DNA of 64,000 nucleotides, from the NCBI RefSeq assembly GCF_035083965.1, contig NC_089723.1, forward strand, positions 33,917,193 through 33,981,192, written 5' to 3'. The notes under the pieces are model-generated. The model saw nothing but the letters and a program-made list of their open reading frames with translations, was not told the DNA's origin and ran no database searches. This DNA is from Branchiostoma lanceolatum. Its lineage: Eukaryota; Chordata; Leptocardii; Amphioxiformes; Branchiostomatidae. Below are positions 11,462 through 61,000 of this stretch, one piece after another (the stretch's first letter is position 1; every line of letters starts with the position of its first letter). The position numbers and the translations under genes are program-made.

Positions 11462-12427
11462 GTAAGGGCATCAAGATACCTTACGTTTTATATTGGCAAA
11501 AATACACCAGACTAGTTTATGTTGTGGTGTTGTATTGTGTGTGTGTACGGGTCAATTATGTAGGGTAGTACAAATGTCAACGGCTTGAAACATTCCACAT
11601 TTGTTATATCTGAAACACTGAAAACATCTAAAAACAAGAATGATAAATTTTCACCATTTGACTTAAAAACGTAAAAATGTTGTTTTTAGGCTTTATTCAT
11701 TCGCACATATAAAAAAAGTGAAGTAATTGAAAGTATCTATAAAAACGTGCAGGAGGAAAGAAGTCTGCAAGGCTTATACGAAACCCTCCTCCATTTAGCT
11801 TCGCAAATAACAATTATGATACAAGTGTGTTTAATGTAAGATGAAATAACGAACAAAGGTATAACAAATTAAAAGCCGAATACGGATCGGGAGATTGCAA
11901 ATTAAGAATAAGCCATCAATTATTAGCGGTGATAAAATTTAAAGAACAAGAAAATACATATGAATACCATACTCAAAATGAGTACAACTGAGAATTTCGC
12001 AATTGAAAAGAACATAAGAAACAAATATATGGCAAAAAAGATAATTACTGATGACATATTTCAGATTAAGCGTAAGAAATTCATTATTAAGGAAGACAAG
12101 AAATATTGCAATACGATAATAACATACTCAAAATGAAAACAACTGGGGTATTTCACCGAACATTACTGTAAGTCATGACGACCAAACAAGAAACAGTGAA
12201 AAACTCGAACTCCTACTTATGAGTGAAGCACGACAGAAATCATTGAACTGTTTAATCAGTGTAAACATGTATATCTTCTTGCCAACCCTCGCTCTCCTGG
12301 GTTTGTTGAAGTCCTGAAAGTGCAAATGAATGAATATCATACCAAAGTGCTGTTATGGAAAGAATTTGAAAGATAGAGATATTGTAGCAGCCATCAAATA
12401 AACATTTCCCCCATGGTTTCATTCCAG

Positions 12428-15400: not shown

Positions 15401-17743
15401 CATGCTGACCTACCTGCCCACCTACTTGAAACAGATCCTGGGGTTTGACATCAAGGCGGTGGGTATAGTCCTTGTGACATACAGCCCACAATGGGCTCCC
15501 GACCTTCTTCACTATCATGGTTGGGAGTTGATCATCTGCGGTTGAGAGTAGGTCGGCAAGGTTGCCTGCGTCAGCAGACATCGGATTTTGAGAAATCAAA
15601 GTCGGGAAAGTCACATTCTGCTTAGATGTGATCAGACGGGCGAACTGGAGCTAGGGTGAATTCCAGGCTACTCCAAACCCAGCGTCGACCTTAGTTGGGG
15701 AGTGGTCGTGGAAAGGCCCTGAATGTGTGACAAGGGCTAGGCACAGATTGTGCTCGTTACGTGTAGCAGATGCAACGTTTTAGTAAAAGCAATCTCAAGG
15801 GAAACATCAGCGTTAGACATTTATGTGTCGATGCCGTAACCTTATACCATAAAAAATCTGGACATCTTATAAATTGTAAGAAAGGGTGCATGAAATGACG
15901 GTTGCTTGTTCGTTTGTTACAAATTCAGAATGGCTTCCTGTCGGCCCTCCCTCACTTGGGCCTGATGTTGTTCGTGATGACCGGAGGGTTCGTCACTGAC
16001 TACATCAGGAAACACTGGGTCAGCACTCTCACCGCCCGCAGGATCATGACTTTCCTCGGTACGTATGGTGGGAATATTCTCCTACGCAGATCCTCGCCCA
16101 CGTATATACAGTATACCTTGGGAAGGCTCTGTTTTCTTTTGGTAAAGTCGATTCTTCGATTGGCTGACAGCTGGTTTGAGGCCACGTCCACAAAAGTAGA
16201 AACCTCAGCTTGGTTTAGCAGAGCCTCCTCAAGGTATATTGGTAAGACCGCAGGCAAGGCTCTGCGTAGGAGAATTGGTTGGAAAGGGCAGAAAGCAGGG
16301 ACAGATAGATAAAGGTGCTGGCGACTTGAAAAGGAATGGAATGATAAAATTAGACATCAAAAATCATTATAGCTAACGTTATATGCGATACAAACTTTCA
16401 TGGTAGGCTAGATAACAACAGAAGAAGGCACTTGCATAGTACATTGTACTACTGAAAAATATACACTACCTCCGTGTCATACTAGGCCAAATTCCACCGG
16501 CCATTTTCTTCGTGTTGGCGGGGTACGTGGGCTGTGACCGGGCTGCAGGTGTGGCGATGCTCACGCTGGCTGCGGCATTTGGAGGATTGGCTACCCCTGG
16601 ATTTAAGGTATATTCTACGTTAACATCAGACGATTGTATATGAGATAAGGCTATCTACCATAGCATAGCATATCTATCAGGACCATAGCACACGAGATAT
16701 CAAAACCATAAATTTTGCTGCAGTGCCATAGAATGACGCTAGGAGGTCCATATTCGAACTTGTCCTTTGTTTAGCCAACACTTACATAAAGATCATAAAG
16801 ATCACTCCACAACTTCTTGACTTGTGCAGTCCACCAACAAACGCCACAGAAAACATAATTTATAACGTTGACGAAGGTAAAAAAAAAAAGCCTAGCCTAC
16901 TTAGAACGAAAAAGTTGGGCCGAGGGAGGGGTGTTGACAACTTTTAAAACTACTGTTCCTGTTGGTACTACTGATAGATTTCCAATGTTCCTCATCTTCT
17001 GACTTGGAATAACACTTAATCTACCTCCTTCAATTGATTAAAGTCAAGAAGGAAATCATCAAGCTGGGCGCTTGGAATGACATCAATGTTATACTGATGC
17101 TGACTTCATTGATGTGAATTACACACAAAAATGACTAAGACGCCTTTTGTTGTTTCCAGTTGTCCCATGTTGAGTTGGCCCCCCGGTTCGGAGGAATCCT
17201 GTACGGTATCACCAACACTTTTGGTAACATTCCCGGCTTCGTCACACCGCTGGTGGTCGGCACACTCACCAACAATAATGTAAGTCAGTAATGGTATTGT
17301 CATCTATCTGTGGTCATGTTAGATATAGTTCTAATTCGTGACAGTCTGGCCTCCACCAGGCCTTCCTACGGGGGTACGGGTCGTAGAATTTGGCAACAAA
17401 ATGAATAATTGGCCGGGAGAGTCTGTCCAAGGTAAGGTTAACATTTCCCCGCACGGCCAGTCAACCACTTTGGTAGCCAAACTCCCCTGGCAAATTATTG
17501 TCCCTAAACATTAACTTGTGGTTTTCTTGAACACTTTTCGCCCTCCAGCAAACCCGGGAGGCGTGGCAGACGGTGTTCTGGATCGGCGCGGGGATCTACG
17601 TGTTCGGCGGGCTGGTGGTACTGGTGTTCCTGCGGACGGACGTCCAGGAATGGGCCAAGGACCCGGAGGGAGAAAATGGCCCGGAACCCGGCCATCTCGC
17701 TTCTGACAATACTTCAACAAGAAGCAGAACAACTCGTCTGTAA
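12428..17743 (+). CDS. SLC17A5-like: Sialin-like SLC17 anion transporter, copy B
   Basis: Tandem paralog of the gene at 829-8093, same family and presumed role in anion transport across lysosomal or vesicular membranes. Exons: 12428-12613, 12876-13005, 13196-13302, 13658-13745, 14020-14106, 14900-15024, 15306-15458, 15929-16058, 16486-16607, 17160-17279, 17549-17743. Every exon except the last has exactly the length and phase of copy A, giving 480 residues, plus any first exon such as 11444-11461. About 20 substitutions separate the two proteins, for example YVTTQ for YVCTQ, GAKIV for GGKIV, HTCSTWGFYTMLTY for HTCSNWGFYTMLTN, and MLTLAAAFGGLATPGFK in exon 9. Several of these fall in membrane segments. 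The C-tail lacks the second GPEGEK unit. The intact frame and splice sites argue for a working gene. Introns are shorter because several mobile elements in copy A are missing here. Confidence 0.9.
15463..15740. mobile_element. Dispersed ~310-bp element, copy 2 (decayed)
   Basis: Same intronic position and phrase order as 4484-4797 (for example GGGCTCCCGACCTTC, TCGGGAAAGTCA, GGTGAATTCCAGGCTA), but the terminal CTGTCAC/GTGACAG ends are eroded. It was inherited through the SLC17 tandem duplication. Confidence 0.65.
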
Positions 17744-18908: not shown

Positions 18909-21900
18909 TTAGTATGGAATAGGTCTGGCTGGTATTGGCTCTAAGTCATGAATTCCGTCTTTGTCCACCATCCGTACACTGAAGGTGGGCAGGTTCACTA
19001 TGAAACGCTTCTGGATCTGTGAGGAAGGAAAAAGACGGGACTTAACAAAGAGGTGACTTCATGTTTGTACTACAGTTGATTCTTGCACTTGAGAACAGAA
19101 TGTCCTCAAGTCAGGGTACTATAGCACAAAAATTATCTAGGTACAAGTCCAAAATACTGGTTAGGGAACAGGTCCAAAATACTGCAACATCAATGTACTG
19201 GTACTGTGCCTGAATAAACTTACACTCAATTACATAGCTTTTTTTACTTATTTTGTTACTAAAAATGTGTTATTCCTACCACAAAGATTGATCTAGCACC
19301 GGGAAAAGATAAAAAACATTGAAATCAGCACCATCTTTGACGATCCTATCAAAAGCATGGGCTCTCTGCATATGATACCTGACTTCTAAATAAACTTTCT
19401 GTTAACTGTTTCTCATGTTTCTTTCATCATTGAAGATCACAGGATAGCTTGTCAAAGTATTCAGGTACAGGTACCTTAAATCACTGTACCTGTACCTGTA
19501 CCTCACTTTAAGCAGCCCTACTTCAAGTAAGAAATGCTACTTCAAGTAAGTACTTCAAGTAAGAGCAGGTGAGGAGACCAACTCACCTCAGCAATCGCCT
19601 TGTGCAGCAGTGCTACAGCCTCATCTTTGGTCATGTCTGTTAGACAGGAAAAATAATAATAAAGTTATCTCAGTCTATAACATGATACAACATTGCAAGC
19701 AGCTACATTCTGTATAAACATGAGAAATGAGTTTGAGGATCTCACGACTTAGTAAATTTCTCATATATCTTGTTTCATTGTTTCTCATATATCTTGTTTA
19801 ATTGTGTCCATCACCTTCTGTCACTCAACATTACCTTCCCATGAGTAGCCTCTTCCATTGACCCCATCAGCTGGGCTGTCATGTCTGATTAACAACTAGT
19901 TCTACCACCTCTGAACTCCACTTCTTGCCACTCTGGCAAGCCTGACCTGTGTGGTCATCTTCCTGCCCCTCTATTAGTATTAACAGTTTATTCAAATAAC
20001 AATAGATACACACAATCATAACAACACACACATTGAAAACAAAAACTCAAAAGATTAAGCGTTGAATAGCACTAACCATCCCTGTAGTATTTGTCAAAGA
20101 TGCTGAGCACGAAGAATCCTCCGTAGCCGTGTGCTCCGAACGGGACCTTGTTGAGGGAGGCCAGGTAGTCCAGGAAGTACAGCTGGGGGCCGTCTGTCTC
20201 ATCATGGCCAGCAATCAGCAGGTTCACAAAGTACGGGGTCTGTAGAACAACAGAAGATTAAAATTATCTTCTCTTTAAAAATGACACAAAACTGAAAGCA
20301 TAGATTTGCTAGTAAAAATCTGTTCCATCTACGTTTTCAGTCTACGTGTATTTTTTTACCAGCAATTAGTAGGTTCACAAAGTATGGGGTCTGTTGAAGA
20401 ACACATTTTAAAAATTATCTTCTGTTTAAGACAAAAAACTGAAAGCAGAAATCTGCTGGTAAAAATCATTTTCAGCTAAGTTTGTTTTACGCTCGGCACA
20501 GAAAACAACACTGTTAATTTTTGATTTAGAAGCATTTGTTTTTGCGCGTACCGGTGAGAAAACTTATTGATTAAAATTAAGCAATCTAGAGGTCCTTACC
20601 GAGCTGCGGAGGTAGTCTGCCATGTTTTTCCTGGTGAAGTTGGCGGCAGCGTGGGGTGACAGGGTGTAACCTGTGGCAGGAAAGATAGGAGCACTCTTAG
20701 CTAAGTCATGGTAACAGTAAAATGATGGATTTGAATCTTATGTAACTGCCTAGTTAACAAAAAGGGTGAGAAACTCTAGAAATTTTCTTTGCAACTAAAA
20801 TTGAAGTCCTGGTGTACCGGTGTAATGGCCTGGGTAGAGTGCCCGCCTTTCATTCAGTAGGTCCTGAGTTCAATCCTGGCCAAGCTATACCAAAGACCTT
20901 AATAATAGTACATACTTCTCTCTCTGCTTAGCACTCGGCATTTGTCAAAGAATATGGCAGTTAAACACATACCACTACCAGTGGATTAGCCCCATGCTGT
21001 AGTGATTTTACAAAAGTTGTGTGGTCCAAGGGCTTAATAAAAGAGATGGGCGCTGCCACTATCCATGTGTGCTGCAGGAGCACTAAGTTTTTTTAACTAA
21101 AAATAGTAAAACTAATGCAATTCCTTTCAATGTAAAAAACAGGTGACTCATCTAAAGTTTGCTAAAAGGATGACAGATGAGTGACAGGACTGAAACACGT
21201 GTTGCCATGGAAACCATCACCTAAGTCCTTACCGTTCCTCATCTTGTACAGCTGGATGTTCTTCTGGATGTACTCAGCAAACTGGACCGTGTCACCTGAC
21301 TCCCCCGTACAGCCCATCAGGATCTTATCACTCAACTTGTGCATCTTGTCATGGTCTGTGGAGGGAGGAGAGGAGGTGGGAAGATTTAGGACCCCCGACG
21401 ACCGTTTTCACAGATAATTGGATCAAGGAGCAGTGTGGTTAAGAGACTTATACTATAATCCAACATGGCACAAATGACATCAAATGAAAAGGATGTATAC
21501 TTCATAATGAAGTTCATTCTGAAGAAGGAACAGCGTGCAGCATTTAACAACCTGAAGCAAACTTGAACTGTAATTTCCAACACAAGAATTGGACTTACCA
21601 ATTTATTTTTCGACTGTCCAACTCGAGTCTTCGTCAAACAAATGAGCAAGTGCAATTTTTGTTGTGTTGGAAAATTATTACAGCTCAACTTTGCTTCAGA
21701 ATGATTTCTACCAACACAGATGAACTTTCACGCTGACAACAAAGCATGCCTTAAACAATCATAAATGTTGATGTCAACACAAATGTTTAGGTCTCCAAAA
21801 AGCAAACGGCTACGAAAATGAATAAAATAGATTACGGCTAGCATAAATTGGTGCTGAATTTGGCTATTATTGTCTTGGAAACAGCTCTAAGCCAAGTGCA

Positions 21901-22142: not shown

Positions 22143-22295
22143 TTTTGCCCCGTTTCTTTCACGAGAATGATTCTCGCGTTCTCTCGCGATAGCATGGTCA
22201 GCGCCATCAGATCGATCAAAAGCGCCGCTTAGGAAAAACTAGCGGAAAGGCAGTCAAAAGAGTTCAGATAGCAGACGACAAAGAGAGCCTGCAGC
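22143..22295. promoter_or_regulatory. Bidirectional PSMB2/ASRGL1 promoter
   Basis: Only 153 bp separate the two divergent start codons. The interval is CpG-rich and holds TTCTCGCG and TCTCGCGA (22172-22189), a motif found in many metazoan TATA-less promoters. The ASRGL1 start lies in GCATGGCGGC, which resembles a YY1-type downstream element. No TATA box is seen. Shared regulation is inferred from distance and motifs only. Confidence 0.75.
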
Positions 22296-25200
22296 ATGGC
22301 GGCGATGAAGACTCCGACTATCGTGGTGCACGGTGGAGCCTGGAGCATTCCAGACGAAATCGCCGAGGCTAGCCAAGCTGGGGTGAAGGCTGCGGCAGAG
22401 GCAGGGTACAAGGTGGGCCTACATTTTACAGGGATCCCTTTGAAAGGGCTTCAATGGCAGACCAACACAACACAACAGTACAAGGGACATGCATGGCCGG
22501 TGATCGCCGGCGCTAGTGTACTGCAAAATACTTGTGCCCTGCACACTGTAACGAGCAAAACAGAATGACTCATTTATTGTGCTGATGTATCTTTGATGCG
22601 ATGATATTTCCAATGTAGCATGCGAGCCATGTGAAATACTGTCAACCCGGAAATGATAACTGTATTTGCGAACAGCTGGTGATTTGTGTACTGTGAACTT
22701 TCTCTGACCTTTGGCCCTACTAATCGTCTCGCCTCTGGTCTCTCCCTCCGACTCTCGCAAACAGCGTAATTTTCCAATATTTTGCACAAGTCTCCCTGAT
22801 TAGGACACTCGTGCCCGGCCCTGTCGACGAGAACAGCAGATACGTCCGTGCGACCCTGTGGCTAAAAATAGATTTGTCTCACAGTGCATGGGCCGATTGC
22901 ATTGGTCTGTGTAGTTACTGTAATCAAGGACAATGTCCTTGCTGTAATGTAATATTCACGCAAAGTCCAGGGAGAATACTCAACTCTATCTGTTCATTAG
23001 GGGCTCCCTTTGCTTGTAGACTGCCTCACTGTTGTCTGATCTCATTTTAACGCACAGGTGCTAACGTCAGGCGGCAGTGCGCTGGACGCTGTGGAGACCG
23101 CTGTGCGGATCATGGAAGATGACGTCGTGTTTGACGCCGGTAGGTGGCGCTGTTGAACTGTCTGTGAACTTCATCTTCATCATCTGGTCGTGACATACTA
23201 CAGTCTCACAGGTCTTCATGACCCTTCTCCTCCATCCCTCCCTATCCTCCATTGTACTGGGCTTCAGTACTGCCTAGTTGCTTAGTGTTTGAGACACAAT
23301 CTTGGAATTCTGCCAGATGTTTTTTTTTTGTTAATTGCTCGGTCAATTTAACTTAATCAGCGATCTTACTAGTACCATCATCCATAGAAGTCATGATTGG
23401 AAAAAAAATGCAGTATGCCACCTTAGAGTGTGATGGCCTTCAGCAGAATGGTGTAAAATGTGGTACAAAAGATTCACACACCTGGTGATAGAATCATGGA
23501 ATTACATTGATCATTTTATCTTTAAAAAATAATTTAAAAAAATAATAAAAATCCTTTATCTACTTTACATTGCCTTTACAGGAACCGGCTCTGTGTTAAA
23601 CAGTGCAGGAGATGTAGAGATGGACGCCATCATCATGGACGGGCAGAGCCTGAGGGCGGGGTCGGTAGCCTGTGTCCAGAACATCGCCCATCCGGTCAGC
23701 CTGGCCAGACAGGTCATGGAGAAGGTCAGTATTGCATGGGACATCAGTGGATTTCTCTGACCTTGAGGACAGCTTTTACTGCACGAAATTCTATCTTTAA
23801 GCGTACCTTAAAGCATATGTAGAGATAGCATCTATTCTTACCTTATGAATAAACGCTATCTTTATATAAGGTGTGCTTAAAGATAAAATTTTGTTTCGTA
23901 TACACACATGTACTGTATATCTTGAAATACTTGCAGTGGTTTTATTTTCGGAGTTTTCCCAGTGCCTCGAAATCGTAATATGGCAAATACATGTTTTTGT
24001 GCTACAGTCTTGTTTTGACCGCAACCTTATAACACAGCGAAAAACTCCTTTCCACTCCTACCACAACATTAAGTCCCTGCAAAAACAAATCAATTAACCA
24101 TGCTATTTTCAAGATGTCTTATTCTTATAGCATTGAAAGGACTTATTTTCTGTTTTTAATCTTGCACAGCTGTACTAGAAACTTGATGGATTCTAAGATG
24201 TTCTCTATCACTTCCTTATGTTATTTTTCATAGATAGAAACACTAAGATAAGATATGCAGGTACTGATTGTAATTGGTACATCTACTGATGACATCCACT
24301 GATTTTGGAACAGACGGACCATACCATGATTGTTGGGGAGGGAGCTAACCTGTTTGCAAAGGAGCTGGGCATACCCCAAGTGCCTACAGACCAGCTAGTG
24401 ACGGACATCGCCAGGCAACAGTGGGAGGAGTACAACAAGTACAAGAGAGCAGTCAACGAACTCTTCGACTCACAGCTGTAAGTGTGAAACCAAGTAACGT
24501 TGCATCACATTGGCAGGGGAAATGTAGATGTAGTGCATGATACACAGTGGTATTAAAGCAATTCTAGTCATGGACTTATGTCTGGAATGTGTTGTATTGA
24601 AACTTTCAGAAAACTTTGCAACTAGAAAGTTTGTAACATTTCAATAAAGGAATGAGATTATGGTAGATAGTCCTTAGAGGTAATATGACATTAGAGTGCT
24701 TTGCCACAGTAAGAGAGCTTTTTCTGCAATCTATAACAAAACAGATAATCATAAAGCACAGTTTGTTGTAAACCAAATTGCAATAATGCCATCTTACATA
24801 CAAACCATTTAGGAAGGTCATTTTAGGATGCAGTAAAGGTATTGTGAGCCGATGACTCAAAACTGGTCATACGAACAATTCAAGTTCTGAGGCTAACGTT
24901 ACATTTGTTGTGTAAGACTTCATCATATCCTTCTCTAGCAGAGTACCGCTGTTCACAATTTCATAGCTAACTCTGTCTGGTCCCCAGTGGACATGACACT
25001 GTTGGAGCGGTGGCGGTGGACTCAGAGGGAAATGTTGCCTGTGCCACCTCGACTGGCGGGATTACTGCAAAGAGGGTCGGACGTGTCGGGGACTCCCCTG
25101 TTATAGGTGAGACCATATGATCAACACATCACTTCTGCCTTTGGTCAACATCTCAGACCTACAATACTGTTTTTACATTTTACTTCCTCCAACCTGACTA

Positions 25201-26652
25201 CATATCTAGCATGCCCTCTTACTACAAAACTGAGTCTGATCTGGACTTCTTTCACTTCTGAAGTTCAAAAGTTTGGCTTCCTAAATAAAATGTTCATTTG
25301 TTAAGAATAATTCACAGATGGAAACAGGCTACCAGTCAGTTTTTATGACTTTTGATATGTCTTGGGTCAGTCTTGTGGGAAAAAACACAATTTGCAAATT
25401 TAAGTATGGAACAAATCGAACGGACATAATTACACTATTCAAATCCGAATGTTCTTTAAGAAAAATATGATTGTATGTATATATCAACATTGTTGACAGT
25501 TACTGCTATTACCATGTATTTTTTGTACAGAATGACAATAAAGTTTTATTTAAAAAAAAAAAAAAAATGTCTTGGGTCAGTCAGTTGTTGCTGAGTTTTT
25601 CTTAACGTTATATTTTTTATCGTCTTCAACCAATGTTTAGGATATCATAGTTGGGATTTTCCCACTCACTTCACTTATGTGTACTGAGTATATTTCATTG
25701 GAAAAGATTTGAAGTTTAGTTTTTATTGTGCATGTAAATTTAATGAATACATGCTTCTGTTCAGGTTGTGGAGCCTATGCAGACAATGAGTCAGCGGCAG
25801 TGTCTTGTACAGGGCACGGGGAGGCGATAATGAGCGTCACGCTGGCCAGAACCGTCACCGTCAACATGGAGCAAGGTACAGATGGACTGTTCTATGACAC
25901 CCTCTTTCCACTGATGTGGCAACCATTGCATGAGCAACCAAAACTTTCGTAATTCAAATGACTTTCATTAAGAAAGGAGTGTTGTCTATCAAATCACACT
26001 TTTATATCATAGATCATATTTGATTTCTGAAGTCATATGTAAAATCCAATTTCGCCATTTAACAGTCCCCATCCACTGGAAAGAGTGCTCAGTGCCTAAG
26101 ATGTTTTGAATGAAGAGGCTTTTATATCATGTATCATGTAGAACACTGTCATAATACTGTACTACTTTGGCATCACTAGTAAATTGCATTATACAGTGGT
26201 TGCACAGAAAATTGCTTGTACCAATGTTTACCCTTTATTTGCAACAGAAGTATTGCCTAATTTGCATGTGTTGACATTGTGGTCCATTACTTTATGGACT
26301 ATACATGTAAGAATGACTTAGCTAATTTAGAATTTCATTCAGGATTTCAGTTTTTGGTTCTCATGATATATTCCTTTCCCTTCAACACTTCAATCCATGC
26401 CACGTCTATTAAACTAGTCTTACCTTTGAACCCACCACAGGCGCCAGTGCACAAGCAGCAGCCGACAAGAGCATCGCGTACATGAAGAATCGTGTGGACG
26501 GTACGGGGGGAGTCATCGTTGTGAGCAGGGAGGGACAGACGGGAGTCAGCTTTAACACCAGGAGGATGCCGTGGGCGGTTGTGAGAGACGGGACGATACG
26601 ATTCGGAATGAACCCAGGAGAGAACTTTCAAAAGGATTGTCCAAAAGACTAA
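22296..26652 (+). CDS. ASRGL1: Isoaspartyl peptidase / L-asparaginase
   Basis: N-terminal nucleophile hydrolase that cleaves isoaspartyl peptides and L-asparagine, normally cytosolic. Exons: 22296-22412, 23058-23139, 23582-23724, 24314-24477, 24988-25106, 25765-25875, 26441-26652. They join in phase to 315 residues (human 308). Recognisable segments: [11 protein letters not shown] at the N-terminus; [33 protein letters not shown], where Thr173 follows Asp as the expected self-cleavage site and catalytic nucleophile; [23 protein letters not shown]; and TGHGEAI. These are the family's active-site and maturation elements, and none is missing. A short foldback lies in intron 3. AATAAA at 27142-27147 may be the poly(A) signal. 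Confidence 0.95.
23783..23899. repeat. Foldback repeat in ASRGL1 intron 3
   Basis: The left end ACGAAATTCTATCTTTAAGC and the right end GCTTAAAGATAAAATTTTG then TTTCGT are inverted relatives over 117 bp. This is a small MITE-like hairpin with no coding potential. Confidence 0.65.
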
Positions 26653-28191: not shown

Positions 28192-41190
<12,999 letters not shown>

Positions 41191-43947: not shown

Positions 43948-46900
43948 ATGCAACATCCAGATGAACACTCGGCCACCAGAATGGGACAATCCTGGAGCAG
44001 GTACTACGGACCGGAGGTCACGGAGGAGTCGGACGACGAGTGTTGGGAGGAGGACCCGAGGGTGAAGCGGCTGAGAGCGAACGGCCGCCTGCCGCCAGCA
44101 CGGGCAGGGAGGGAGGGCCTGGCACGGGCGATCCGAGACTTCGGCTGGGAACTAGTGAGTTATCACTCCTTATAACTCATCTTGTCTCAAATATAACCTA
44201 TTTATTCCTGGTACGAGATACTGTACTTTAATATTTAAGCATTTTGATTTAAGTGGAATGTAAGAGATACTTTAATCATGATAATCTCATTGTGTTAAAC
44301 AAATGATGTCCACAAAGATCTTGAAAATTGAGGTAGCTAAAAGTTTCGAATTTACTGATTGCAATATATGTGAAAGCAGAAGTGATTTACCATAACAAGT
44401 TGTTAAGTCATTGTGATGTATTTCAATATGTTGCAACGTGGCTTTCTTGGTAGCATAATCAAGGAGGTTAAAATATAGTCTAAACCCTTTTCTTTTGAAA
44501 TGACCAGGAAATAGTGGTGGAACCATTTTATTTTCAAAATCTTTGACTTGAAATGCTGCTTTCAATTCAAATAGATGTACTGTGTTTTGTAGCTGTCCAT
44601 CATATTGAAGAAATCATAAATCTTACCCTTTAAGAAAATATTATCATAAATATGGTAACGTTATCTTTCCAATTTGCAAATTCTGATGGAAAACATTTAA
44701 CGTTAGATGTACAGTATGTCCATGACAAATTATGATTATCATGATTTATCCTTTTCAAATTGATAGGGAAAACTGCAAAAGGCTGTCAATGGTGGGAATT
44801 CAAAATTGTGCTAGAAAATTACAATACAATTGACCATGCACACACTAGACTCTAGAATAACAATCTGGAAATGATAAGTTAATTATGCCAATCATCGCTC
44901 TTTAACAGCTCCATCTTCTTTGACCAGGTGGTTCCACAGGGAGGGCGGTCGAGACCGGTTAGACTGAGATCATCTTGGAGTTCCAAGGACACGAGGGATT
45001 ATCGTAAAGGCTACCCTGTAAGACATCCATGCATATTGTCTATAATCTTATTGGATTGCATTGTGAATTTGTGTTATGATGAAATGATATGAAGGTCAGT
45101 CACGTTAACAACAAATACATATGTATACTGTCCAACCTGTGCAAGTGACCACATGGACAATGTGACCATTTTTCTTGTGGTCCCTGAAATGTTTTCATTG
45201 ACACAAGCATCAATCCTGTCTAAGCATTAGGATCCTGTCTATAAGGATCCTGTCTATTGTGACCGCCATGTAGATGGATTTTCTAGTCTTGTTGGCCAGC
45301 ATACCAATGTCATTTATTGGATTGCAATTTTAACTGAATTCTTTTTTTTTTTTCGCTCCAGGGGAAGAGATCCAACCCAATCGTCAATGAAAACTACAAC
45401 TTCTACACAAACAACATTAAGTCAAAACCAGATGGTAGATAACATACTTCATGGATCAGTTATACATAGAATTGGTTACTACATTGATCAACTCACTCAC
45501 CCTACATACAAGTACAGTTGCACAGACAGAATGTTAGGATTAGATTACTTTGATGTCAAAAATGCAGATGGAAGCTGCTATTAGCATACCAGTATTTGGC
45601 GATTTGTCTGTTCATATCCTCATGGTGCCTAGTGGCACATAGGACAGCAAGTTTCCTTGCTATTTCAGTAGTAGCAGCATGCCTGGGTTCAACCCCGGCA
45701 AAATTACAAAACTCTTTGATGTCCTGGACAGCATCTGTCTGATTAATAACATGTTTGATACACCCCTCACCCCCATTTGAACTTTCTGACCCCTCTTCCT
45801 CCTTCTGATAGGTGACTTCATTGACAACATTCACAAGGACTGGTGGGGGGACTACACCCGTCTAGAGATGCATCATGGGTACATCCAGTGGTAAATACTA
45901 CACATATACATGTATTTTGTAGTTATCCAATAAACGAGTCCATGTTCACAAATATAAATGTTTGGTTCTTCCAAATTTGGAGTTTTTTTATATCAGTTGG
46001 TACTTGGCCAATCTAAAGAGATATTCTGCATCTTTCAGGTTGTTTCCCATCAGAGAAGAGGGTATGAACTGGCAGGCCATGGAGTTACAAGAACATGAAA
46101 TTAAGGTAAATGCTGTTTGAATCTGTAGGCACAACAATACTATAGCTAGTATATGCCTCAATCTCTCTTACTTGTGTTCAACTCAGAGGAAAGAAATGTG
46201 TGGATTATCCAAATTTAAAAGCTGTACTGCATTTGATATTGGCCAAAATTAACGGCTGGGATCAGTAAGTTTTTGCTAGGGAAAGTTGGGTAACCGGAAA
46301 ATCCTAGGCCTGACCATTGAATGTTGACTTGACCCAACATGTGTTTGTAAATGTTTGACCCAGCTCATCATGGAGAACGAGGAGGCCCATGCCAGGATCC
46401 TCAAGTCTTACGAGCTGATGCTAGACTTCTATGGCATGAAACTGAAGGACAAAACAACTGGAGAGATTGTACGCTCAGACAACTGGGAAGAACGGCTCAG
46501 CCACCTTAATAAGTCAGTCCCTTTCTGCATTTCATTTAGAATATGTTTTGGGAAAGGGGTTCAGAAAATTGTTAATCTCTTGCCTCTTTGGTGTTAGCTT
46601 TTTTATAACATTGATTCTGGACTAATTTTGAATGCTGGTTGGTGAAAATCATCAAATTGATTGGGATTAAACTTGAAGTTAAAATTGTCGTGATTGCTGC
46701 TTCATGGTCAAGGAAGAGTATTACCTGCAGATTAGAAAGAGCAGCTATTTCAAAACATCTTACATTGTGCTATGTTGCACAAAAGAATTTAGTCCAGAAG
46801 TTGTGAGCTTTATTGCCATACATACAGATGCCTGGGATGCTGCAGAATTTAAGAAAAATGTCCCTTTTTATAGTGAGCAATTCTTTTTGTATGAAAGAAA

Positions 46901-49389: not shown

Positions 49390-49470
49390 CACTTAGTAAT
49401 GTTAGTTGTTTTTTGTACCACACATCCCTTGTGGTCAAATCTAGATGTTTCACAGCAGAAAGGAAAATTT

Positions 49471-49700
49471 ACTTCTGGTTCCTTTGAACTAGAAACCTCT
49501 AGAATTTTAGACCATGATGCAATACTTCATGTTTTGTATGTTTTTATATGCATGATGCATACACACGCATGCATGCATGCATATATACACTTTTACTTCT
49601 GGTTCCTTTGAACTAGAAACCTCAAGAATTTTAGGCAGTGTTGCAATACTTCATGTTTCTATATGCATGATGTATACACACACACACACACACACATGCA
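49471..49700. repeat. ~124-bp tandem duplication plus CA/GCAT microsatellites
   Basis: ACTTCTGGTTCCTTTGAACT with AGAAACCTC then AGAATTTTAG occurs at 49471 and again at 49595. It is interleaved with GCATGCATGCATGC and a CACACA tract at 49676-49695. Confidence 0.85.
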
Positions 49701-49879
49701 TACACACAGTCAACAATGCATCGTATATGCTTCATATACACTCAATTTGACTCAAAGCTTAACAAGAGTTCCACGACCTCATATCTCCATGAACAATTCC
49801 ATTCATGCAAATGACTTACACATTTGCATAATATATGCTTGGTCATAAACACATTTATCTAACTTACACATGTTGCAAT

Positions 49880-50795
49880 ATTAACAGTCCTATAATTTTC
49901 CAATTAGATGAATTATGGTGTTTTTGCATTAATTATGCAAATTAGGAATCTATTTGCATAATTGGTATCTGTTGATGCTCCACTTTCCATAAACTACATA
50001 TGTTACATGTATTTGAGTCTGATAATGGAAAACACTGCAAATATAGATTTTCCTCATTAGCTATGCAAATTAAGTCCCAATAAGCATAATTTGCACTTCA
50101 TTACGTATATCTCTGTCTAAGCTACCTTCATACTAAGAACCATATTGACAGTCCTATAATTTTCCAATTAGATGAGAAATGGTGTTTTGAATTAATTATG
50201 CGAATTAGGAATTTATTTGCATAATTGGTATCTGTTGATGATCCACTTTCCATAAACTACATACGTTACATGTATTTGAGTCTGATAATGGAAAACACTG
50301 CAAATATAGATTTTCCTCATTAGCTATGCAAATTAAGTCCAAATTAGCATAATTTGCACTTCATTGTGTACATCTCTATCTAAGCTACCTGCATACTAAG
50401 TATCAAGGAAATCCGTCGTTCCTTTGTTCAGTTATTCTCCTTAGAAGATTTTCACAAAAACGCCCCTGCAGTTCTAGACGAAGCTGCTAGGGGGCCCAAA
50501 CCTACACCACTTCTTTATTACACCACAAGCTATCTACCGCCCAAAAATCAAGACCACAGCACGTCCAGGTCATAAGATACAAAAATTGAAGTTCTGCTGC
50601 AGTACCAAGGTCACATACCAGGGGGCCCAAAATCGACCTTGAACTTTGGCTTCACAACACCTGCCCACATACCAAATATCATTGTAATCCATCAAGAGGT
50701 TTTTGAGTTATGCTGACTACAGTAGTGCGGAAACACAAACAAACACACAGACACACCCAAAACTATATCTCCATTTTTCATGGAGATAACAAAGG
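49880..50795 (-). repeat. Interspersed repeat, orientation 2, with 264-bp internal duplication
   Basis: CAGTCCTATAATTTTCC begins a block at 49885 that is repeated almost exactly from 50149 (period 264 bp), with TTTGCATAATTGGTATCTG and GCTATGCAAATTAAGTCC in both. From about 50440 a GGGGGCCCAAA/CTGCAGTACC block follows and ends near ACACACAGACACACCC. It is the reverse complement of the family at 9230-10985. Confidence 0.75.
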
Positions 50796-52004: not shown

Positions 52005-55000
52005 TCAAGTCTGCTGTTGCTGGTCCTGCTGCTGTCCATCCTGCTGTATCAGTGCTGTCTGCTGGGTCCCTGCTGTTCCCCCCGAGGGGCTGGACTGTGC
52101 CACAAAGATCTGCTGAGGGGTGGGCGCCCCACTGGTGGGGATGTTCACTTGCTGTAGGAGATATTGCTGGGGGTGGGGAGAGCAGGATGTGGTCATTAGA
52201 ATCTTAACAATACTAGAAGAGTACTAATACACTGTAGTGCCAAAATACAGTCAAACCTGTCTATAGCGGTCACTCAAGGGACTGGCCAAAACTGGCCGGT
52301 AAGGACAGGTGGCCGCTATGGAGAAAATGTCGATTAATTGACCACGAGTGACACTTATTTTCAGTACCCACTGAGATACTAGTACATTTATTCACCGTAC
52401 AGTACACATGTAAACATTGCATAGGTAAGTCACATTTTAGAAAGTCGATTGTTGTTCTTTTACTTCTATTATGGGCTTGAAAAAAGAATTATTGTATCTG
52501 CCAACTCCAAAATCCATGGCTTGCTCGGGCTTCATGTCTGTACAGACCAGCATCGCCATTATCTCTACTCTTGATCCTTCGCGACTGCTTCGCTGCAGGC
52601 ACACGCGTCACCAACGAGTTTTAATCATATGAAACAAAGTCCTTCGCAGCAAAATGCCACCTAGTTAGTTGAGAACAAAATACATGTTGCTCAGTTGCCA
52701 CTTACTGTTCGTTTTCCAGCGTTTTGAAACATAAAATCGTGGCGATAGTTTTCCTTAGTCTGTTGTTGTTTCACTTCCCGCTTGTCATTATCAGCTTCTA
52801 CCATTATGCTAATAGGGTACTCAGAAGAAGGTCGTTCTTTTGATGGCTTTTTTCTTTTCAGAAAATTGCAATAGCCCAAATTTTACATCATATTAATGTT
52901 ATTCATTTTTCTTTTGAAGCTTTTGGTAAAGTAATTATCCTCAGTGATACTTTGCAGCAAAATAAATTTAGCGCATTATACCTCCGAAACAGTGGTGTCT
53001 TCCGTTGACCTTTGTGCTGCTGACTATCAGCGTAATTTTGAAAATCACACGAAACACGTTTTGACTTTGGGACCTGGGAAAACGGATATTGGGCCGGCAT
53101 TCAAACATTTCCCGAACTTACCGCATCAGCTACATGTGCGAGTTGTATTTTCCAAAAGCTGCCGTAATATTTGTCCGGTCGAAATGCACAGAAATGGTCA
53201 ATTTTGCTACGATGTACAAACGCAAGCCATGTGAAGAAAATTACACTGACTTCGCGTCAAACCATGGATTTTCTTACAAAGATAAAACATTCTGGTTTTC
53301 TTTATTATCATCCTATCCAGTTGAGTCCACATAAATTTGATAACTGCGTGAAAAAATGAAGATTTTGAACCCGGCGCGCGGTGGCGATGCGGCTTCTACC
53401 GGCGCGCCGTGACCGTTACCGACAGTGTTACTGTACTCGCGGGACTGAAAATCGTCTGGCCGCGACCGCGTTAGACAGGTGGCCGTTATAGCCTAATTCT
53501 TAATGCTTATGTCAATGGGAAAAATCAAAGGGACCGACAAAAAGTGACCACTATGGGCAGGTGGCCGCTATGCAAAGGTGACCGCTAATACAGGTTTGAC
53601 TGTAGGTGAAGAACACTGAGAATGAGCCAAATCCTTACGTCTGCTTGGAGGTTAACCACATTAGACATTTTTGATCTTCACTCAAAGAAAGTCTCCTTCA
53701 TAAATCAAGTACAAAGTGATCACAATTAATTCAATGAAAAACTGAGACAAGCGTGACTAGTATGAACTCCCTGAACAGAGCCGATTGGAAGCGCGGTGTG
53801 AAGACTAGCCGAATGCTGCACATCCGTGTCAGGGACCCCAGCAGCAGTATAATCAAACAATGGATACTACATGTACTACTAGTACTACTACTGCTACCCA
53901 CCTGGCCATCTGCAGTAAACTGAGTGAACTGTTGCTGTTGTTGTTGTTGTTGCTGCTGCTGTTGCTGCTGTTGTCCAGCTGGTACAGCTATCTGCTGTAC
54001 AAGCTGTCCTTGCTGTGGCTGCTGCTGTTGCTGCTGTTGTTGCTGTGGTTGTTGTTGCTGTTGTTGTTGTTGAGGCTGGGCTAGCCTGATATATTGTAGC
54101 TGGCCATCTTGCACCTGGACCTATGGGTGAACATATAGCTATCAATACGATGGCTTCAAATGAATTGAGGAGAGAATAAGCATAGAGAAAAAATTCCTTC
54201 CGATTTTTCCTATAAACTATGTAGGAATAGATGGGTCAATGAAGTTTCTTCCTAACAGTCTTGTTCAAATTATTTAAATTGTCACCATTCATTCAGCCGT
54301 TCATTTTTCCCTAATATTTACTAGAGTGTACAAAACTTAGTCTATAACCCTGTGCCTGCTGCTTTTTATGAGACTTAAAGTAGGTACTAAGCAGACAATT
54401 TCATTAGCATGTTTTCAAACGTATGGGGTATGAATGAGGAAGTATCAGTGATAGCCAGCCAAGGTAGACAGCCCCGCTTTTTCCGCAAACCCTACGATTA
54501 CAAGAGGTACATTTGACCTGCCCAAGGGAAGGGCAGCAGTCCTTCCTTACGGGTATGTGTTGGATCTGTCCAGTGTTTGGGTCTGTCTGTCACAAGTATG
54601 GAGAATGAATGAGGAAGTGTAAGTGATAGCCAGCCCAAATAGGCAGCCCAGCCTTTTCTGCAAACCCTACAACATCTGACCTGCCCAAGCAGAGGGCAGT
54701 AGTCGTTCCTTACCGGAATGTGTTGGATCTGTCCAGTGTTCGGGTCTGTCTGTTACAACGAAGTATGGGGTGAATGAGGAAGTGTAAGTGATAGCCAGCC
54801 AAGATAGACAGCCAAGGTAGACAGCCCAACCTTTTCTGTAAACCCTACAACAATTGACTTGCCCAAGTGGAGGGCAGTAGTCGTTCCTTACCGGAATGTG
54901 TTGGATCTGTCCAGTGTTCAGGTCTGTCTGTTACAACGAAGTATGGGGTGAATAAGGAAGTGTAAGTGATAGCCAGCCCCAGATAGACAGCCAAGGTAGC

Positions 55001-58000
55001 CAGCCCAACCTTTTCTGCAAACCCTACAACAATTGACTTGCCCAAGCAGAGGGCAGTAGTCGTTCCTTACCGGCATGTGTTGGATCTGTCCAGTGTTCAG
55101 GTCTGTCTGTTACAACGAAGTATGGGGTGAATGAGGAAGTGTAAGTGATAGCCAGCCCAGATAGACAGCCAAGATAGACAGCCCAACCTTTTCTGTAAAC
55201 CCTACAACAATTGACTTGCCCAAGCAGAGGGCAGTAGTCATTCCTTACCGGAATGTGTTGGATCTGTCCAGTGTTTGGGTCTGTCTGCTGGACCATGATG
55301 GTCTGGATGCCCTGCTGCTGCCCCGGCCCCGTCTGCACTTGGATCACCTGCGGTACCGACGTCGTCTGGGAGACATCCGCACTCGATGACATCACTGGGG
55401 CCTAGGGAACAGGTGTCGGCTCTATCAGGATGACGTCTTGATATGCTAAGCTGCTTGATATATGTGTAATTACCTCACGTTTGGGATTGCATGGTAAACA
55501 CTGCAGGTACTACCTATCTTAATCTATATATACATATTTTGTATCAAAATATACATATATTTTGTATCAAAATATACATAATACATTTAGGACCACATCT
55601 GTTAGCAGCGACACATACTTCAATTTTTTTACTTGTAGTGCATAGCAGTCAGAATTGCCCTGGGGAGGGTGACAGTTGGTCACTGAAACGTAAGTCTTGA
55701 ATAAAACACTTACAGTGTTGACGGAGACTGCGGCTGGTTGCGTCTGCACCTGTGACTGCACCTGCGTCTGCACCTGGGTCTGCACCTGCTGCTGGATGGG
55801 ACTCTGCTGGACCACAATCTGGGGAAACAGAGGGCATTGCCATCTCCAGGATTTGTAGAGGAGCAGAGGAATCATCACTTTGATAGACACAACCGCTTAC
55901 AATTTTCCTTTCAAAGTCCGCAAAAAGGGCAAGGCATGTTTCTGGCTATATGCTACCCGTATACAGATTGATAAATACAGAACCTTGAAACTTGAACGGG
56001 GACATCTAGCGATGCCAACACGGGGAACAATGGGTTGAATACAGAGAATGTGCTTCAGTGTGCAAACCATGCTTTCAAACAGGATGTTATGTCACACTGA
56101 AAGAGAAAACTATTTCAAAAGGATGGACCAGAAAGGCTTGTAGGGAAGCCAGGTGGAAATTATTTCTGTGTTCACAGTATCCCTTATAATTCCTTCTCAC
56201 AACATACCAGGGTTCTTACCACTGGTGCAATTTTTGTCTTTTCATTTCACACAACCCCAACTATAGTCTTTTCTGATCCACCCAAAAACATTTAAAAGTC
56301 ACTATGCAATGATTAGTAAAACTTGGTAAAACCATTGAACATTCTCCCCACTTAGGTAGTCTTTTGACACCAAAATTGTATTGGTTAGGGTGTTAGGCAG
56401 CAAGGATAATGGAATGATTTAATGATAATAATGGAATGATTCAGTAATTCTGAGGTAACTTTCAACAAGAATGTTCAGTGCTACAGCTCATGTCCTCTCT
56501 GCTCATCACCCTCTGGCTGGAAAAGCTGATACATGACCACAAAAAGACACACAGTCAAACCTGTACAAGTGACCACCTCTACATAAGGACCACCTGGCCA
56601 ATGTGACCCTTTTTCATGTTCCCTTAGATAATTTTCCCCATCAAGCATTAAGAATCTTGTCTATAGTGACCACTTGCCCACATAGATGTAGGCCATTTTA
56701 GTGGTCCCTTCAAGTGGTCTTCTTGGGCAGTTTTGACTGTACTTGTGTGTGAGCCTTGATGTTTAGATCATCATTTCTGTGTACATCTGACAATGTGGCT
56801 GTCTGAACATTAAAACTGTAGTTACTTGGCAATGCTAAGTTGTAAGTGGTATCATTGTGGGCTTGGCAATAACAGAAACAACATGATCATCCATTGGGAG
56901 TGAAGAATACAGAACTTCTCGATGTAGAGCATTCAGGGAAAACAGTGCAAAGAAAGTTTATATGAGATAGCACATAAGACTGCACATACACTGCCCACAA
57001 CAGCTGAAAAGCCAGGTATGCTAACTTGCCAGCAAATCTGTGTTAAGCCAATTGAAATGTGATTGATACAAAACTCAAACAATGGCGAGAATCACTAGTT
57101 TTACAAGAGAGAGCTCTAAAATCTAGCAGAAGTTGCCAATACTACTATTCCCTGACGTATTTGTGTGTAGCACTAACTTGGTTGGAACGTTGTGTTAGTG
57201 GACTTGGCTGTAGCCCGCCATGTCCCTGCACTCCAATGGCCCTCTGCAAGAATTACAAAACACAGGTAACAAAAAAAATAAACCTGCTCTCTAAGTCTAA
57301 CAGCAACTGCTGCTCTGCCCACTAGAATTGCTAGAGTGTGTCCTTTGTGCTATAGAACAAGTCAACACTAGACTATGTTCTATAGATGTTAACCATGGCC
57401 AGCAAACACACACACAGCACACAGATGACTAGCAGGAGTATCACAAAAGCAGATACTGTAAATGCATTTAAGTTCGCGGTGGTTTTAAGTTCGCCTTTGT
57501 ATCAATAGACAAAGAGGTAGGAGGGCAAAAAAACTGCGGTAGTTTTCAGTTCCAGGTAATGAGCTTTCCGCAAAAACCGCAAACATTTCTGTATTTACAG
57601 TATTCTGACACCTTTGTTCTTTCATGAACATACTCAGACGTGTCATAAGACATGGAGTTAGTACAAAGCTGGTCCTGGTGAACTTGCAAATGACACAGAA
57701 ATTAAATTTCTTCAGCTGTACAATGTCAAGAGGATATAGGCAAATGATTGAATGAACTGTTAGCAGATAGAAGTCTGTTAGTAGTATAGTGTGGGCAAGA
57801 GGGGCACACCTGTTGCGGCTGCGGTGAGATGATCTGCGGCTGCGCTGCGGGAGGTTGCAGGGGGGAAGGAGTGTTTTGAGGAAAAGTGCTCCCCACCTGC
57901 TGCGGCTGGGAAATGATCTGGCTCTGGACGGGCTGCGCGGTCTGCGGCTGGGGCTGGATCTGTCCCACGGCCTGCTGCTGGGGCTGCTGCTGCGGCTGCT

Positions 58001-61000
58001 GCATCTGCACGTGCTGCTGCGCCAGCTGGAAGTAGTACTGCACCTGGTCTGGGGCCATGACGGCCTGTCGTACCTCCTCCTGAAATGCAGGCAGAGGTTG
58101 CATTTTCGAAGTTTTAACAATGCAGCAAATATCTATGTGTATCTGTACGACAGGCTTGTTTCAACTGTGAACTTAAAACACAGCAAAAACGGCCTTTTCC
58201 CTCCTAGACTCAAGTCCGTACTGCTTGTCATACTTCCTCCTAAAATGCAGGGTTTTGGAAGTTGGCAGAAGTTCTATTACTGTGCTACATTGCAGTGGTG
58301 GAAATACTTTTTTTCAGTGTTCTGCAATATTGCAGAATGTCAAAAAAATTTTCTGCAATTTGAAAATATTTTCTGCAAATACACATGCCTCCATACTACA
58401 ACCTTCTCAACTTAATAATGCCTACTTACTTACATTATATCTATAGCTTTGCAACATTGCTGTAATTCTTTATTCTCTCACTCTATCTTTGATTATCACT
58501 ACAAAGATTTTAAGAACAATAACATGCATGTGTGTGAAAAATATTAAATTAATAGAGAAAATTGCAACAGCAAAAGTATATTCAATATCAATCAAATCAA
58601 ATATTCGTTTGATCATTTCAGTATGTGTATCAAAATTAACAACAAATTCAACAGCCTGTCTGATCAGGAGGACAAGGGTATTACATCTGTGTATTAAATA
58701 TGTATTAAATACGTGTTCTGATGCGTATTATGATAAATAATAAATAAGATCGCACGACCTGTGACACAGCCACGGCCCACAGAAAACATGACAAAAAACG
58801 ACAAAAAAATGTAAAATTCAAAATAAAACGCCTTTACGCAAACCTTGGCCTCTGTGTAGTTTTTGTATAAATCTGAAACATTACTATCGGTTTCAAACAT
58901 CGGACTCCGACTTCGGACATTCGGGGAGACTTCAGAGACGGCCCGGCGATGTTAGTTTTTCACGTGGGTGCCCCCCCCCCCATTGTGTCGGCACAGGAGA
59001 AAATGTTCCGCCTTCTCCACACAAGGCGGTGCTCAATATCTATCCGAGTAGTTCGCAACTTCATCGCTGCCATCTGGGCTTCAAGGACCACGGGCTAATG
59101 AAGTGGCCACCGTTTCGTTCCTTCTGTCATCGCCCCCATGCCCCGAGTTCGAGCTCTGAAGAAATCGCAGCTTGCGACATACTTGTTTACGCTAGAGAAA
59201 CATCCGGGAATTGTTTTCCTGACTTTTGCCGACCCCGAGATCCTGACCGCGGAGATTAGCGAGGGTTGACGGAAATGCACGAATTTGACATTTTCTCACA
59301 TGATTCATCCCCGAAGTTATCACGGAAAGTGTCGAAACTCCCCGAAAAAACTGACCTCAAGTAGCACCAGGCAGTCGGAACGCACCGAAATGCCGCCATC
59401 TCGCGCGGCGCTGTAGGCTTCAGTTTATTTACAGCGCCGCTAGTTTGCTTAGTACTAGTAAGTCTATATAATCTCCTGAATTGAGAGCCATTGAATCCTG
59501 AGTCTGATTTTTTTTCTTCTGCAAAATTGCAGATTGTTTAATTTTTCTTCTGCAATCTTGAAAATCTTTATGCAATTTGCAGATTGCAGACGGGTATTTC
59601 GAACGCTGCATTGTATTACTTCTGTGCGTCAAACTTGTTTAAACTGTGAACTTAAAACACCATGGAAACCACTTTTCCCCTCCTAGGGTGAATTGCTTCT
59701 CCTACTTCCTCCTAAAATGCAGCGTTTCGAAAAGTTGGCAGAGGTTCTGTTTTCACGGTTTTATCAACACAGCAAATATCTATTGCTGTGGTATTACTAT
59801 TGTATGAAAGAATTGTTTCAAAACAGATGCCAGAGTTTTCATTAAGTACTGCAACAATGTAACTACAATATTAGTTGTTATTCTGACAACAGCTCTTGCC
59901 CTCACTAAAGAAAGTTCCAGAAAAGTTCACCTGTCTCTTTGGTGGCTTCAGCTCGTCCCTTGGCACAATGTCGATGAGAAAGTCAAACTGGTCGAACTTG
60001 GTAATCGCCATGGCAATGTCATTTCTCTGCAACAAATCACAAAAGTTAAAGATAACACTTGACAGCATCAAGGAATGTAATAAACTATCTTGATTTTTAC
60101 AGTCACTTAGGTTCTCTGATATGCCAGCATCAAACATAATTGAACTTGTATGCTGTCTTTGAAAGTCACTATTAAAATTACATTAAAAGAATTTCTAGGA
60201 CACCCTGTCAAAATGCTTGCAGTGCAGGTACAATTTAATTGTATTTAACACCAACAAATACATCTAGCAAATATCATCATTGTTCAAATTAATTTTAAGA
60301 CATAATTGTTAACTTAGAAAAGCCAGCAACCTGGGTACAAACTCTGATTACTTAGTTTTCTGTCTTTTCAACTTTGGTCTCAAAATGGACAATAAAATTT
60401 CATTCTGTCCCATAATTTTCACAATAATAATTCAACTGAATGAAAAACTCTTGGAGCCCTTACCTGCAGTGTTCTTCTCTTGTTGTCCTCGGTGTGTACC
60501 CAGGCACGGAGCGTCAGCTCACTGATGAAGATCTCACAAGCTTTCGCAAACAGCAGTGGGGCCTCTGCACTGATCATCTGGTATAGAAAACAAAGCCAAT
60601 CAGAGCACGGTCTTACAACAGTTACAGCAACTCTTTACTGAAAATGCATGTACTTTTGCTGTGGTTATCATGAAAGTTTCAAGATTGACAGAACGTAGGG
60701 CTTAAAAATGATTGTGACCTGCAAGCAGTAGACCCTGTGTTGAATCACCAAAGCCTGAGATAGCATACATGAACATTACTTCAAACACAGATTTAGTTTT
60801 TCTGCATTTTCCGGCAACAGCTTCAGCACATGCCATGCCTGTACAGTGTGAATGTCTACGGCACCTGGGCTACGGTATTTAAGGATCCCACATTATGGAA
60901 TATTTTAGCTAAAAGATTTCACTTCTTACCTTGACATCCTCATCCAGTTTCATGATTTTCTTGATCCTAGCCAAGGGTAGTTCTTGGACCTTGAAGTCTG

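What the first reader, a model, noticed from the sequence alone, without database searches (positions are those of the whole stretch)
54417..55290. Tandem array of in-frame 12-residue mini-exons downstream of NFYC exon 7
Four extra copies of the last 36 nt of exon 7 each have an AG acceptor after a pyrimidine-rich stretch, a GTAAGG donor, no stop and phase 0-0. Each encodes TD(P/L)NTGQIQH(I/M)P. They could be spliced in, alone or in series, to lengthen the Gln-rich activation domain in 12-residue steps. The acceptor seems to have been created when a tandem duplication joined intron sequence to the exonic CAG just before ACAGAC. Frame, length and splice sites survive in all four, although the 178-bp units have drifted elsewhere.
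Basis: partly seen in the sequence, partly recalled or inferred. Interest (0 to 1): 0.85.

Follow-up and report, generated by a model that had tools for sequence, protein, structure and literature searches.

The report
Lancelet NFYC exon-boundary tandem repeat
A stretch straddling the end of one exon of the lancelet gene for the transcription factor subunit NF-YC has been copied four times into the next intron, a known lancelet habit called a 'mirage'; the copies look like usable tiny exons, but the closest annotated lancelet protein does without them.

Summary
On the minus strand, the last 36 nt of NFYC coding exon 7 (55284-55249) and about 142 nt of the following intron recur four more times. 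The four 36-nt copies are in frame, stop-free and flanked by AG and GTAAGG. The gene is lancelet: its protein matches Branchiostoma lanceolatum NFYC at 438 of 442 positions.

Lancelet genes are known for minisatellite-like tandem duplications of exon-intron boundaries, 'mirages' (Adh3, troponin C, globins, PGBD5), reported to leave splicing undisturbed. The same NFYC gene holds what looks like a second, older, frame-broken one at the exon 5 acceptor.

The mini-exon reading is possible but unsupported. The sites score like authentic ones, yet the B. lanceolatum protein joins exon 7 directly to exon 8. Retention of frame and sites fits neutral drift (P about 0.12-0.34); the exonic parts are not significantly more conserved. 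No RNA was examined. Best reading: a young donor-side mirage, normally removed as intron; a new member of a known kind.

The parts
55249..55401 (-). NFYC coding exon 7 (153 nt, phase 0-0); the last 36 nt, 55284-55249, are the exonic part of the repeat unit
   Evidence: Gene model; matches the B. lanceolatum protein directly before VQVQ
54415..55287 (-). Donor-side boundary repeat ('mirage'): exon 7 end plus proximal intron 7, five units including the authentic one
   Evidence: TRF period 178, 93% matches; self-BLAST 76-88%; unit alignment
55071..55106 (-). Mini-exon-like copy 1, [12 protein letters not shown]
   Evidence: acceptor score 7.17, donor 9.25
54892..54927 (-). Mini-exon-like copy 2, [12 protein letters not shown]
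   Evidence: acceptor 7.17, donor 9.25
54714..54749 (-). Mini-exon-like copy 3, [12 protein letters not shown]
   Evidence: acceptor 7.17, donor 9.25
54551..54586 (-). Mini-exon-like copy 4, [12 protein letters not shown], in the most diverged unit, weakened donor CCC|GTAAGG
   Evidence: acceptor 6.69, donor 4.51
53902..54120 (-). NFYC coding exon 8 ([16 protein letters not shown] plus polyglutamine)
   Evidence: Gene model
58142..58278 (-). Copy B of a probable older acceptor-side boundary repeat in intron 4: TTTTAG|GAGGAAGTATGACAAGC; stop in the fourth codon of the exon-like part
59621..59821 (-). Copy A of the same acceptor-side repeat: TTTTAG|GAGGAAGTAGGAGAAGC, about 1.5 kb upstream of copy B; frame stops after 19 codons
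57810..58079 (-). NFYC coding exon 5, long form (a short form would end at 57897); its start is the authentic acceptor of the older repeat
   Evidence: the long form is the one in the B. lanceolatum protein

Best explanation
A lancelet 'mirage': a minisatellite-like tandem duplication that happens to span the 3' boundary of NFYC exon 7. One duplication joined intron 7 sequence to the exonic CAG just inside the end of exon 7 (shown by the junctions). Later slippage or unequal exchange made more copies, the youngest nearest the real exon (inferred from the divergence gradient). The spliceosome normally pairs the first donor (55249) with the exon 8 acceptor (54120), and the copies leave with the intron (inferred from the orthologue's protein and from other mirages). 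Because each unit carries a symmetrical 36-nt cassette, occasional inclusion would add 12 residues, probably harmlessly, so the array is tolerated rather than maintained (inferred).
For: Lancelet gene: 438 of 442 aligned positions identical to B. lanceolatum NFYC. Published mirages have the same anatomy: units of 10-160 bp, duplications of either the 5' or the 3' exon boundary, 6 versus 3 units in two haplotypes of BflGb6, less homogenised cluster ends, and splicing reported as regular (passages read in PMC3087553 and PMC3902484). Here units 0-2 differ from one another at 5-6 aligned intron positions, unit 3 from them at 17-20, unit 4 from them at 24-27. The last columns of that alignment are poor; without them and without gapped columns, unit 0 differs from unit 3 at 8 of 106 and from unit 4 at 17 of 106. 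The B. lanceolatum protein has one copy, then VQVQ. A probable second boundary repeat with broken frames lies in the same gene. Exon versus intron variability: 4 of 36 against 21 of 106 columns, Fisher P = 0.31.
Against: No RNA data could be examined, so direct exon 7 to exon 8 splicing in this animal is inferred. The copies' acceptors and three of the four donors score as well as several of the gene's own and have long AG-free zones, 66-82 nt against 18-53, so some inclusion is plausible. The oldest copy carries only synonymous changes from exon 7 (2 of 36 against 17 of 106 intron columns, one-sided P = 0.09). I could not see whether the B. lanceolatum locus has the array, and that annotation discarded gene models lying in repeats, so small exons in an array might have been missed.
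Confidence: 0.78

Rival explanations
1. Regulated or stochastic inclusion of the mini-exons: the four cassettes are spliced in, alone or in series, giving NF-YC isoforms whose Gln-rich activation domain grows in 12-residue steps.
For: All 16 inclusion combinations are open and in frame. Splice sites score within the range of the gene's own; three copies' donors are the best three of 55 GT sites in the intron, and the four acceptors are among the best eight of 56 AG sites. The 12-mer is a copy of a segment that other animals' NF-YC shares (119 of the 120 listed homologues hold the motif).
Against: The B. lanceolatum protein lacks them. None of the 120 listed homologues has the motif twice, and the search with the all-inclusive protein returned 1 protein of 2017 candidates, that same one. 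An AG elsewhere in the array (54517) scores above all four copies; two more (54209, 54491) score above copy 4. A second AG four bases on breaks the frame. Reported mirages are said not to disturb splicing.
Confidence: 0.15
2. Exon or intron in the making: the array is raw material from which a new constitutive exon or intron position will arise, as proposed for lancelet globin genes.
For: Published model (PMC3087553, passages). NFYC exon 5 may show an end state: its last 87 nt carry an imperfect echo of the exon's earlier end and are coding in B. lanceolatum.
Against: The exon 5 echo is weak (4 of 518 overlapping control windows in Gln-rich coding sequence of the gene score as high). No significant sign of constraint in the exon 7 array.
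Confidence: 0.05
3. Assembly artefact or an array specific to one sequenced haplotype.
For: Tandem arrays can be misassembled; one published lancelet mirage (BflGb6 haplotype 1) appeared wrongly assembled in the draft genome.
Against: The units are clearly different from one another (17 of 106 ungapped intron positions between units 0 and 4; 27 of 124 if the poorly aligned end is kept), so they are unlikely to be copies made by an assembler; copy number may still be wrong.
Confidence: 0.02

Closest known systems
Lancelet 'mirages': BflGb6 and BflGb9 (globin), Adh3, troponin C
   Same: Tandem minisatellite-like copies of an exon-intron boundary with splice signals in the copies, in the same animal group; unit length like the globin ones (150-160 bp); one published case duplicates the 3' end of an exon (BflGb9), another the 5' side (BflGb6).
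   Different: Different gene; here the exonic part is a complete symmetrical 36-nt cassette with both splice sites in all four extra copies, whereas for the globins the paper says many, not all, repeats hold AG/GT signals. Copy-number difference (BflGb6) and RT-PCR were reported there, not here.
Lancelet PGBD5 repeats (2 or 7 x 60 bp; 3 or 6 x 108 bp in two assemblies)
   Same: Imperfect tandem repeats that abut a donor; an automatic gene model called the extra repeats an exon, and the authors excluded it.
   Different: [quoted passage not shown] That splicing is undisturbed there is the authors' inference, without cDNA across the repeats.
Tandem exon duplication giving alternative cassette or mutually exclusive exons (recalled, e.g. 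Dscam, Mhc)
   Same: Adjacent copies of an exon with both splice sites.
   Different: There whole exons are duplicated and expression is known; here only the last 36 nt of an exon are copied and the acceptor is new.

Membership tests
Lancelet mirage | Gene of a cephalochordate | tested here: met
   NFYC protein 438/442 identical to Branchiostoma lanceolatum; the exact species of the window is not settled
Lancelet mirage | Minisatellite-like tandem repeats that span an exon-intron boundary | tested here: met
   Array 54415-55287 spans the exon 7 donor
Lancelet mirage | Copies carry splice-signal dinucleotides (many, not all, in the published globin cases) | tested here: met
   AG and GT in 4 of 4 extra copies
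Lancelet mirage | Copy number varies between haplotypes or cells | not testable with these tools
   No second haplotype or reads held; whole genome not held
Lancelet mirage | Regular splicing is not disturbed | tested here: inconclusive
   Orthologous annotated protein has the direct junction; no RNA for this sequence
Functional tandem cassette exons | Copies included in mature mRNA | tested here: inconclusive
   No protein with repeated 12-mer found, but only cluster representatives are visible
Functional tandem cassette exons | Coding constraint on the copies | tested here: inconclusive
   2 nonsynonymous of 5 changes that I inferred by hand, P = 0.15; exon versus intron P = 0.31
NF-YC | Histone-fold domain of NF-YC | tested here: met
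   PF00808 E 1.4e-16; NF-YC chains in the PDB, best E 5e-48, with residues 1-200 as query

The most novel reading that the evidence does not exclude
A mirage whose every unit is a complete, in-frame cassette, so that copy-number change in a minisatellite directly tunes the length of a transcription factor's activation domain in 12-residue steps, between individuals and possibly between cells, since somatic instability is reported for the Adh3 mirage.
Probability: 0.1. Interest if true: 0.75.

Novelty: new member of a known kind. Interest (0 to 1): 0.3.

Why it matters
If the copies are silent, this adds NFYC, probably with two boundary repeats of different age, to the short list of lancelet mirages, and shows one where every unit looks splice-ready and in frame. 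That makes it a good natural test of what the spliceosome ignores. If they are used, a minisatellite would set the length of an activation domain of a general transcription factor.

Tried and rejected
Selection on the copies: tested by exon versus intron variability, by synonymous and nonsynonymous counts and by a neutral retention estimate; none was significant. The retention estimate uses my own count of four intron indel events and a rate taken from variable columns, so it is rough.

Species identification: protein identity points to B. lanceolatum or a close relative but does not decide.

A first gene model had three misplaced splice boundaries and broken frames; one search corrected it. 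The mini-exon coordinates do not depend on it.

Other local repeats of the window (2605-2807 with 5206-5404, 9315-9768, 9915-10934, 11816-12154, 20208-20483, 49468-50405) were not shown to span exon boundaries; I had no gene models there. A duplicated donor end inside exon 5 was examined and left as weak.

The original mirage paper (Nucleic Acids Res 2002, Adh locus) is not held, so its results are taken from passages of two later papers. The listings of ten paper searches showed no report of this array in NFYC. One search was the only one with NF-YC as a term and none combined it with lancelet terms; two searches listed 20 of 38 and 12 of 897 papers. Passages of PMC6896337 on NF-Y splice variants were seen and are not used. 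One protein search was left unused.

The splice-site score matrix uses approximate human-like frequencies that I recalled; it comes from no call and was not fitted to lancelets. The gene's 'own' set there (9 acceptors, 9 donors) includes a candidate 66-nt exon (57243-57178) and the short exon 5 donor, neither of which is in the B. lanceolatum protein.
Full report
What is there. On the minus strand the last 36 nt of an NFYC exon (55284-55249) are followed by GTAAGG, and four further copies lie in the next intron at 55106-55071, 54927-54892, 54749-54714 and 54586-54551, each after ACAG and before GTAAGG. TRF reports period 178, 3.7 copies, 93% matches, score 1163; self-BLAST extends the array to 54415. 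This is a real tandem repeat. The units differ enough from one another that copies made by an assembler are unlikely.

The gene. Two coding models were tried, with a short and a long exon 5, both with a candidate 66-nt exon at 57243-57178 (ten exons, 61715-52005). Both are open throughout with all introns in phase 0. The protein has the NF-Y histone fold, and its first 200 residues match NF-YC chains in the PDB at E 5e-48. The best database protein is NFYC of the lancelet Branchiostoma lanceolatum. With exon 5 in its long form and the candidate exon left out, the window's protein (441 residues) is identical to that 442-residue protein at 438 of 442 aligned positions. The exact species of the window is not settled.

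How the repeat arose. In exon 7 the unit is preceded by ..GGTCCAGCAG|ACAGACC, in copies 1-3 by ..CTTCGTTGTAACAG|ACAGACC and in copy 4 by ..CATACTTGTGACAG|ACAGACC. Downstream of the last copy the intron continues as CCCCATACGTTTGAAAACATGC, the likely parent of the junction (inference). Divergence grows away from the real exon: units 0-2 differ from one another at 5-6 intron positions, unit 3 from these at 17-20, unit 4 from these at 24-27. Part of the larger numbers comes from a poorly aligned end; with that end and gapped columns left out, unit 0 differs from unit 3 at 8 of 106 and from unit 4 at 17 of 106. The youngest copies are next to the exon, or the far end has escaped homogenisation. 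Less homogenised cluster boundaries are reported for a globin mirage (passage in PMC3087553).

Could the copies be spliced in? With an approximate, recalled human-like matrix, the four acceptors score 6.7-7.2 (the gene's nine: 5.6-12.8), three donors score 9.25 (the gene's nine: 3.1-11.5) and the fourth 4.5. Among the 55 GT sites of the intron the donors of copies 1-3 rank first. Among the 56 AG sites the best score belongs to an AG elsewhere in the array (54517), another (54680) ties with copies 1-3, and two more (54209, 54491) exceed copy 4. AG-free zones before the copies are 66-82 nt, against 18-53 nt for the gene's own acceptors. All 16 inclusion patterns stay open; use of the second AG, four bases on, breaks the frame in all four. 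So the sites look competent on paper.

Are they used? Three lines speak against it. First, the B. lanceolatum protein has a single [12 protein letters not shown] followed directly by VQVQ. The BraLan3 annotation is described as built with stage- and organ-specific RNA-seq, B. floridae protein alignments and Augustus, with models lying in repeats excluded (passages read in PMC9673378). That P0001 comes from that annotation is my inference, and whether that genome's locus holds the array is unknown. Second, 119 of the 120 listed homologues (of 3897 found) hold this motif and none holds it twice. A search with the all-inclusive protein, scored over residues 252-372, returned only the B. lanceolatum protein out of 2017 candidates; cluster members are hidden, so this is weak. 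Third, the published cases below.

Does survival of the frame show selection? Not on this evidence. The exonic part varies at 4 of 36 columns, the intronic part at 21 of 106 (P = 0.31); the strongest of the five pair contrasts computed, unit 0 against unit 4, is 2 of 36 against 17 of 106 (one-sided P = 0.09). Of five changes that I infer in the copies, two are nonsynonymous (P = 0.15). The chance that all copies keep sites and frame with no constraint is about 0.34 for substitutions alone and 0.12 with intron-like indels. These are rough figures. The in-phase acceptor is one event with a 1-in-3 chance, not four.

What it is. Lancelet genes are known to carry tandem duplications of exon-intron boundaries, named mirages. 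PMC3087553 (abstract and passages read) describes them in BflGb6 (150-160 bp units, 6 and 3 in two haplotypes) and BflGb9 (157 bp, 3' boundary of an exon). It cites Adh3 of two Branchiostoma species, with somatic instability, and further loci, and states that Adh3 data and their globin RT-PCR suggest no interference with regular splicing, while allowing that cryptic sites in the repeats could give alternative transcripts. PMC3902484 (passages read) describes 60- and 108-bp repeats at PGBD5 splice sites and cites troponin C; there an automatic model called the extra repeats an exon and the authors excluded it, without cDNA across the repeats. The NFYC array fits this class on the features that I could test; copy-number variation and splicing I could not test.

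A second boundary repeat in the same gene. In intron 4, two degenerate look-alikes of the exon 5 acceptor occur, TTTTAG|GAGGAAGTAGGAGAAGC at 59711 and TTTTAG|GAGGAAGTATGACAAGC at 58239, against the real TTTCAG|GAGGAGGTACGACAGGC at 58079. The two copies match each other at 76% over 138 columns. Copy A also matches the stretch just before exon 5 at 71% over 93. The match that includes the real acceptor itself is short, 84% over 32 nt, E 0.006, so I call this repeat probable. One copy has a stop at its fourth codon, the other after 19. If it is a mirage, this is how such a repeat looks when old, and it argues that boundary duplication here is a recurrent mutational habit rather than a device for making exons.

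Verdict. I put 0.78 on a tolerated mirage normally removed with the intron, 0.15 on real use of the copies. It is a new member of a known kind, of moderate interest because all four copies are clean cassettes, which makes the test simple.

Noticed in passing
58142-58278 and 59621-59821, minus strand: Two degenerate look-alikes of the exon 5 acceptor of NFYC with frame-broken exon starts: probably an older acceptor-side boundary repeat in the same gene, its copies about 1.5 kb apart.
   Followed up: yes
58308-58378 and 59509-59575, minus strand: Two direct repeats (76% over 72 columns) lying between those acceptor copies and flanking about 1.1 kb; perhaps the ends of an insertion that split the older repeat.
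   Followed up: no
57810-57897, minus strand: The last 87 nt of exon 5 carry an imperfect echo of the exon's earlier end (QIISQPQQ, then QIISPQPQQ); the stretch is coding in B. lanceolatum. Possibly an exonised old boundary repeat, but the similarity is weak.
   Followed up: partly
57178-57243, minus strand: A 66-nt open, phase 0 candidate exon ([22 protein letters not shown]) with both splice signals that is absent from the B. lanceolatum protein; perhaps an alternative exon or chance.
   Followed up: partly
9315-9768, 9915-10934, 11816-12154, 20208-20483, 49468-50405: Other local tandem duplications in the window, 61-84% identical, with offsets of 124-588 nt; relation to exon boundaries not determined.
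   Followed up: no
15306-46594: Of ten open frames scanned with Pfam, six match: a transporter of the major facilitator type (15306-15542, plus, below cut-off), a proteasome subunit (21165-21407, minus), asparaginase (22272-22565, plus, below cut-off; 25713-25949, plus), ankyrin repeats (29617-30036, minus) and the opioid growth factor receptor region (46328-46594, plus).
   Followed up: partly
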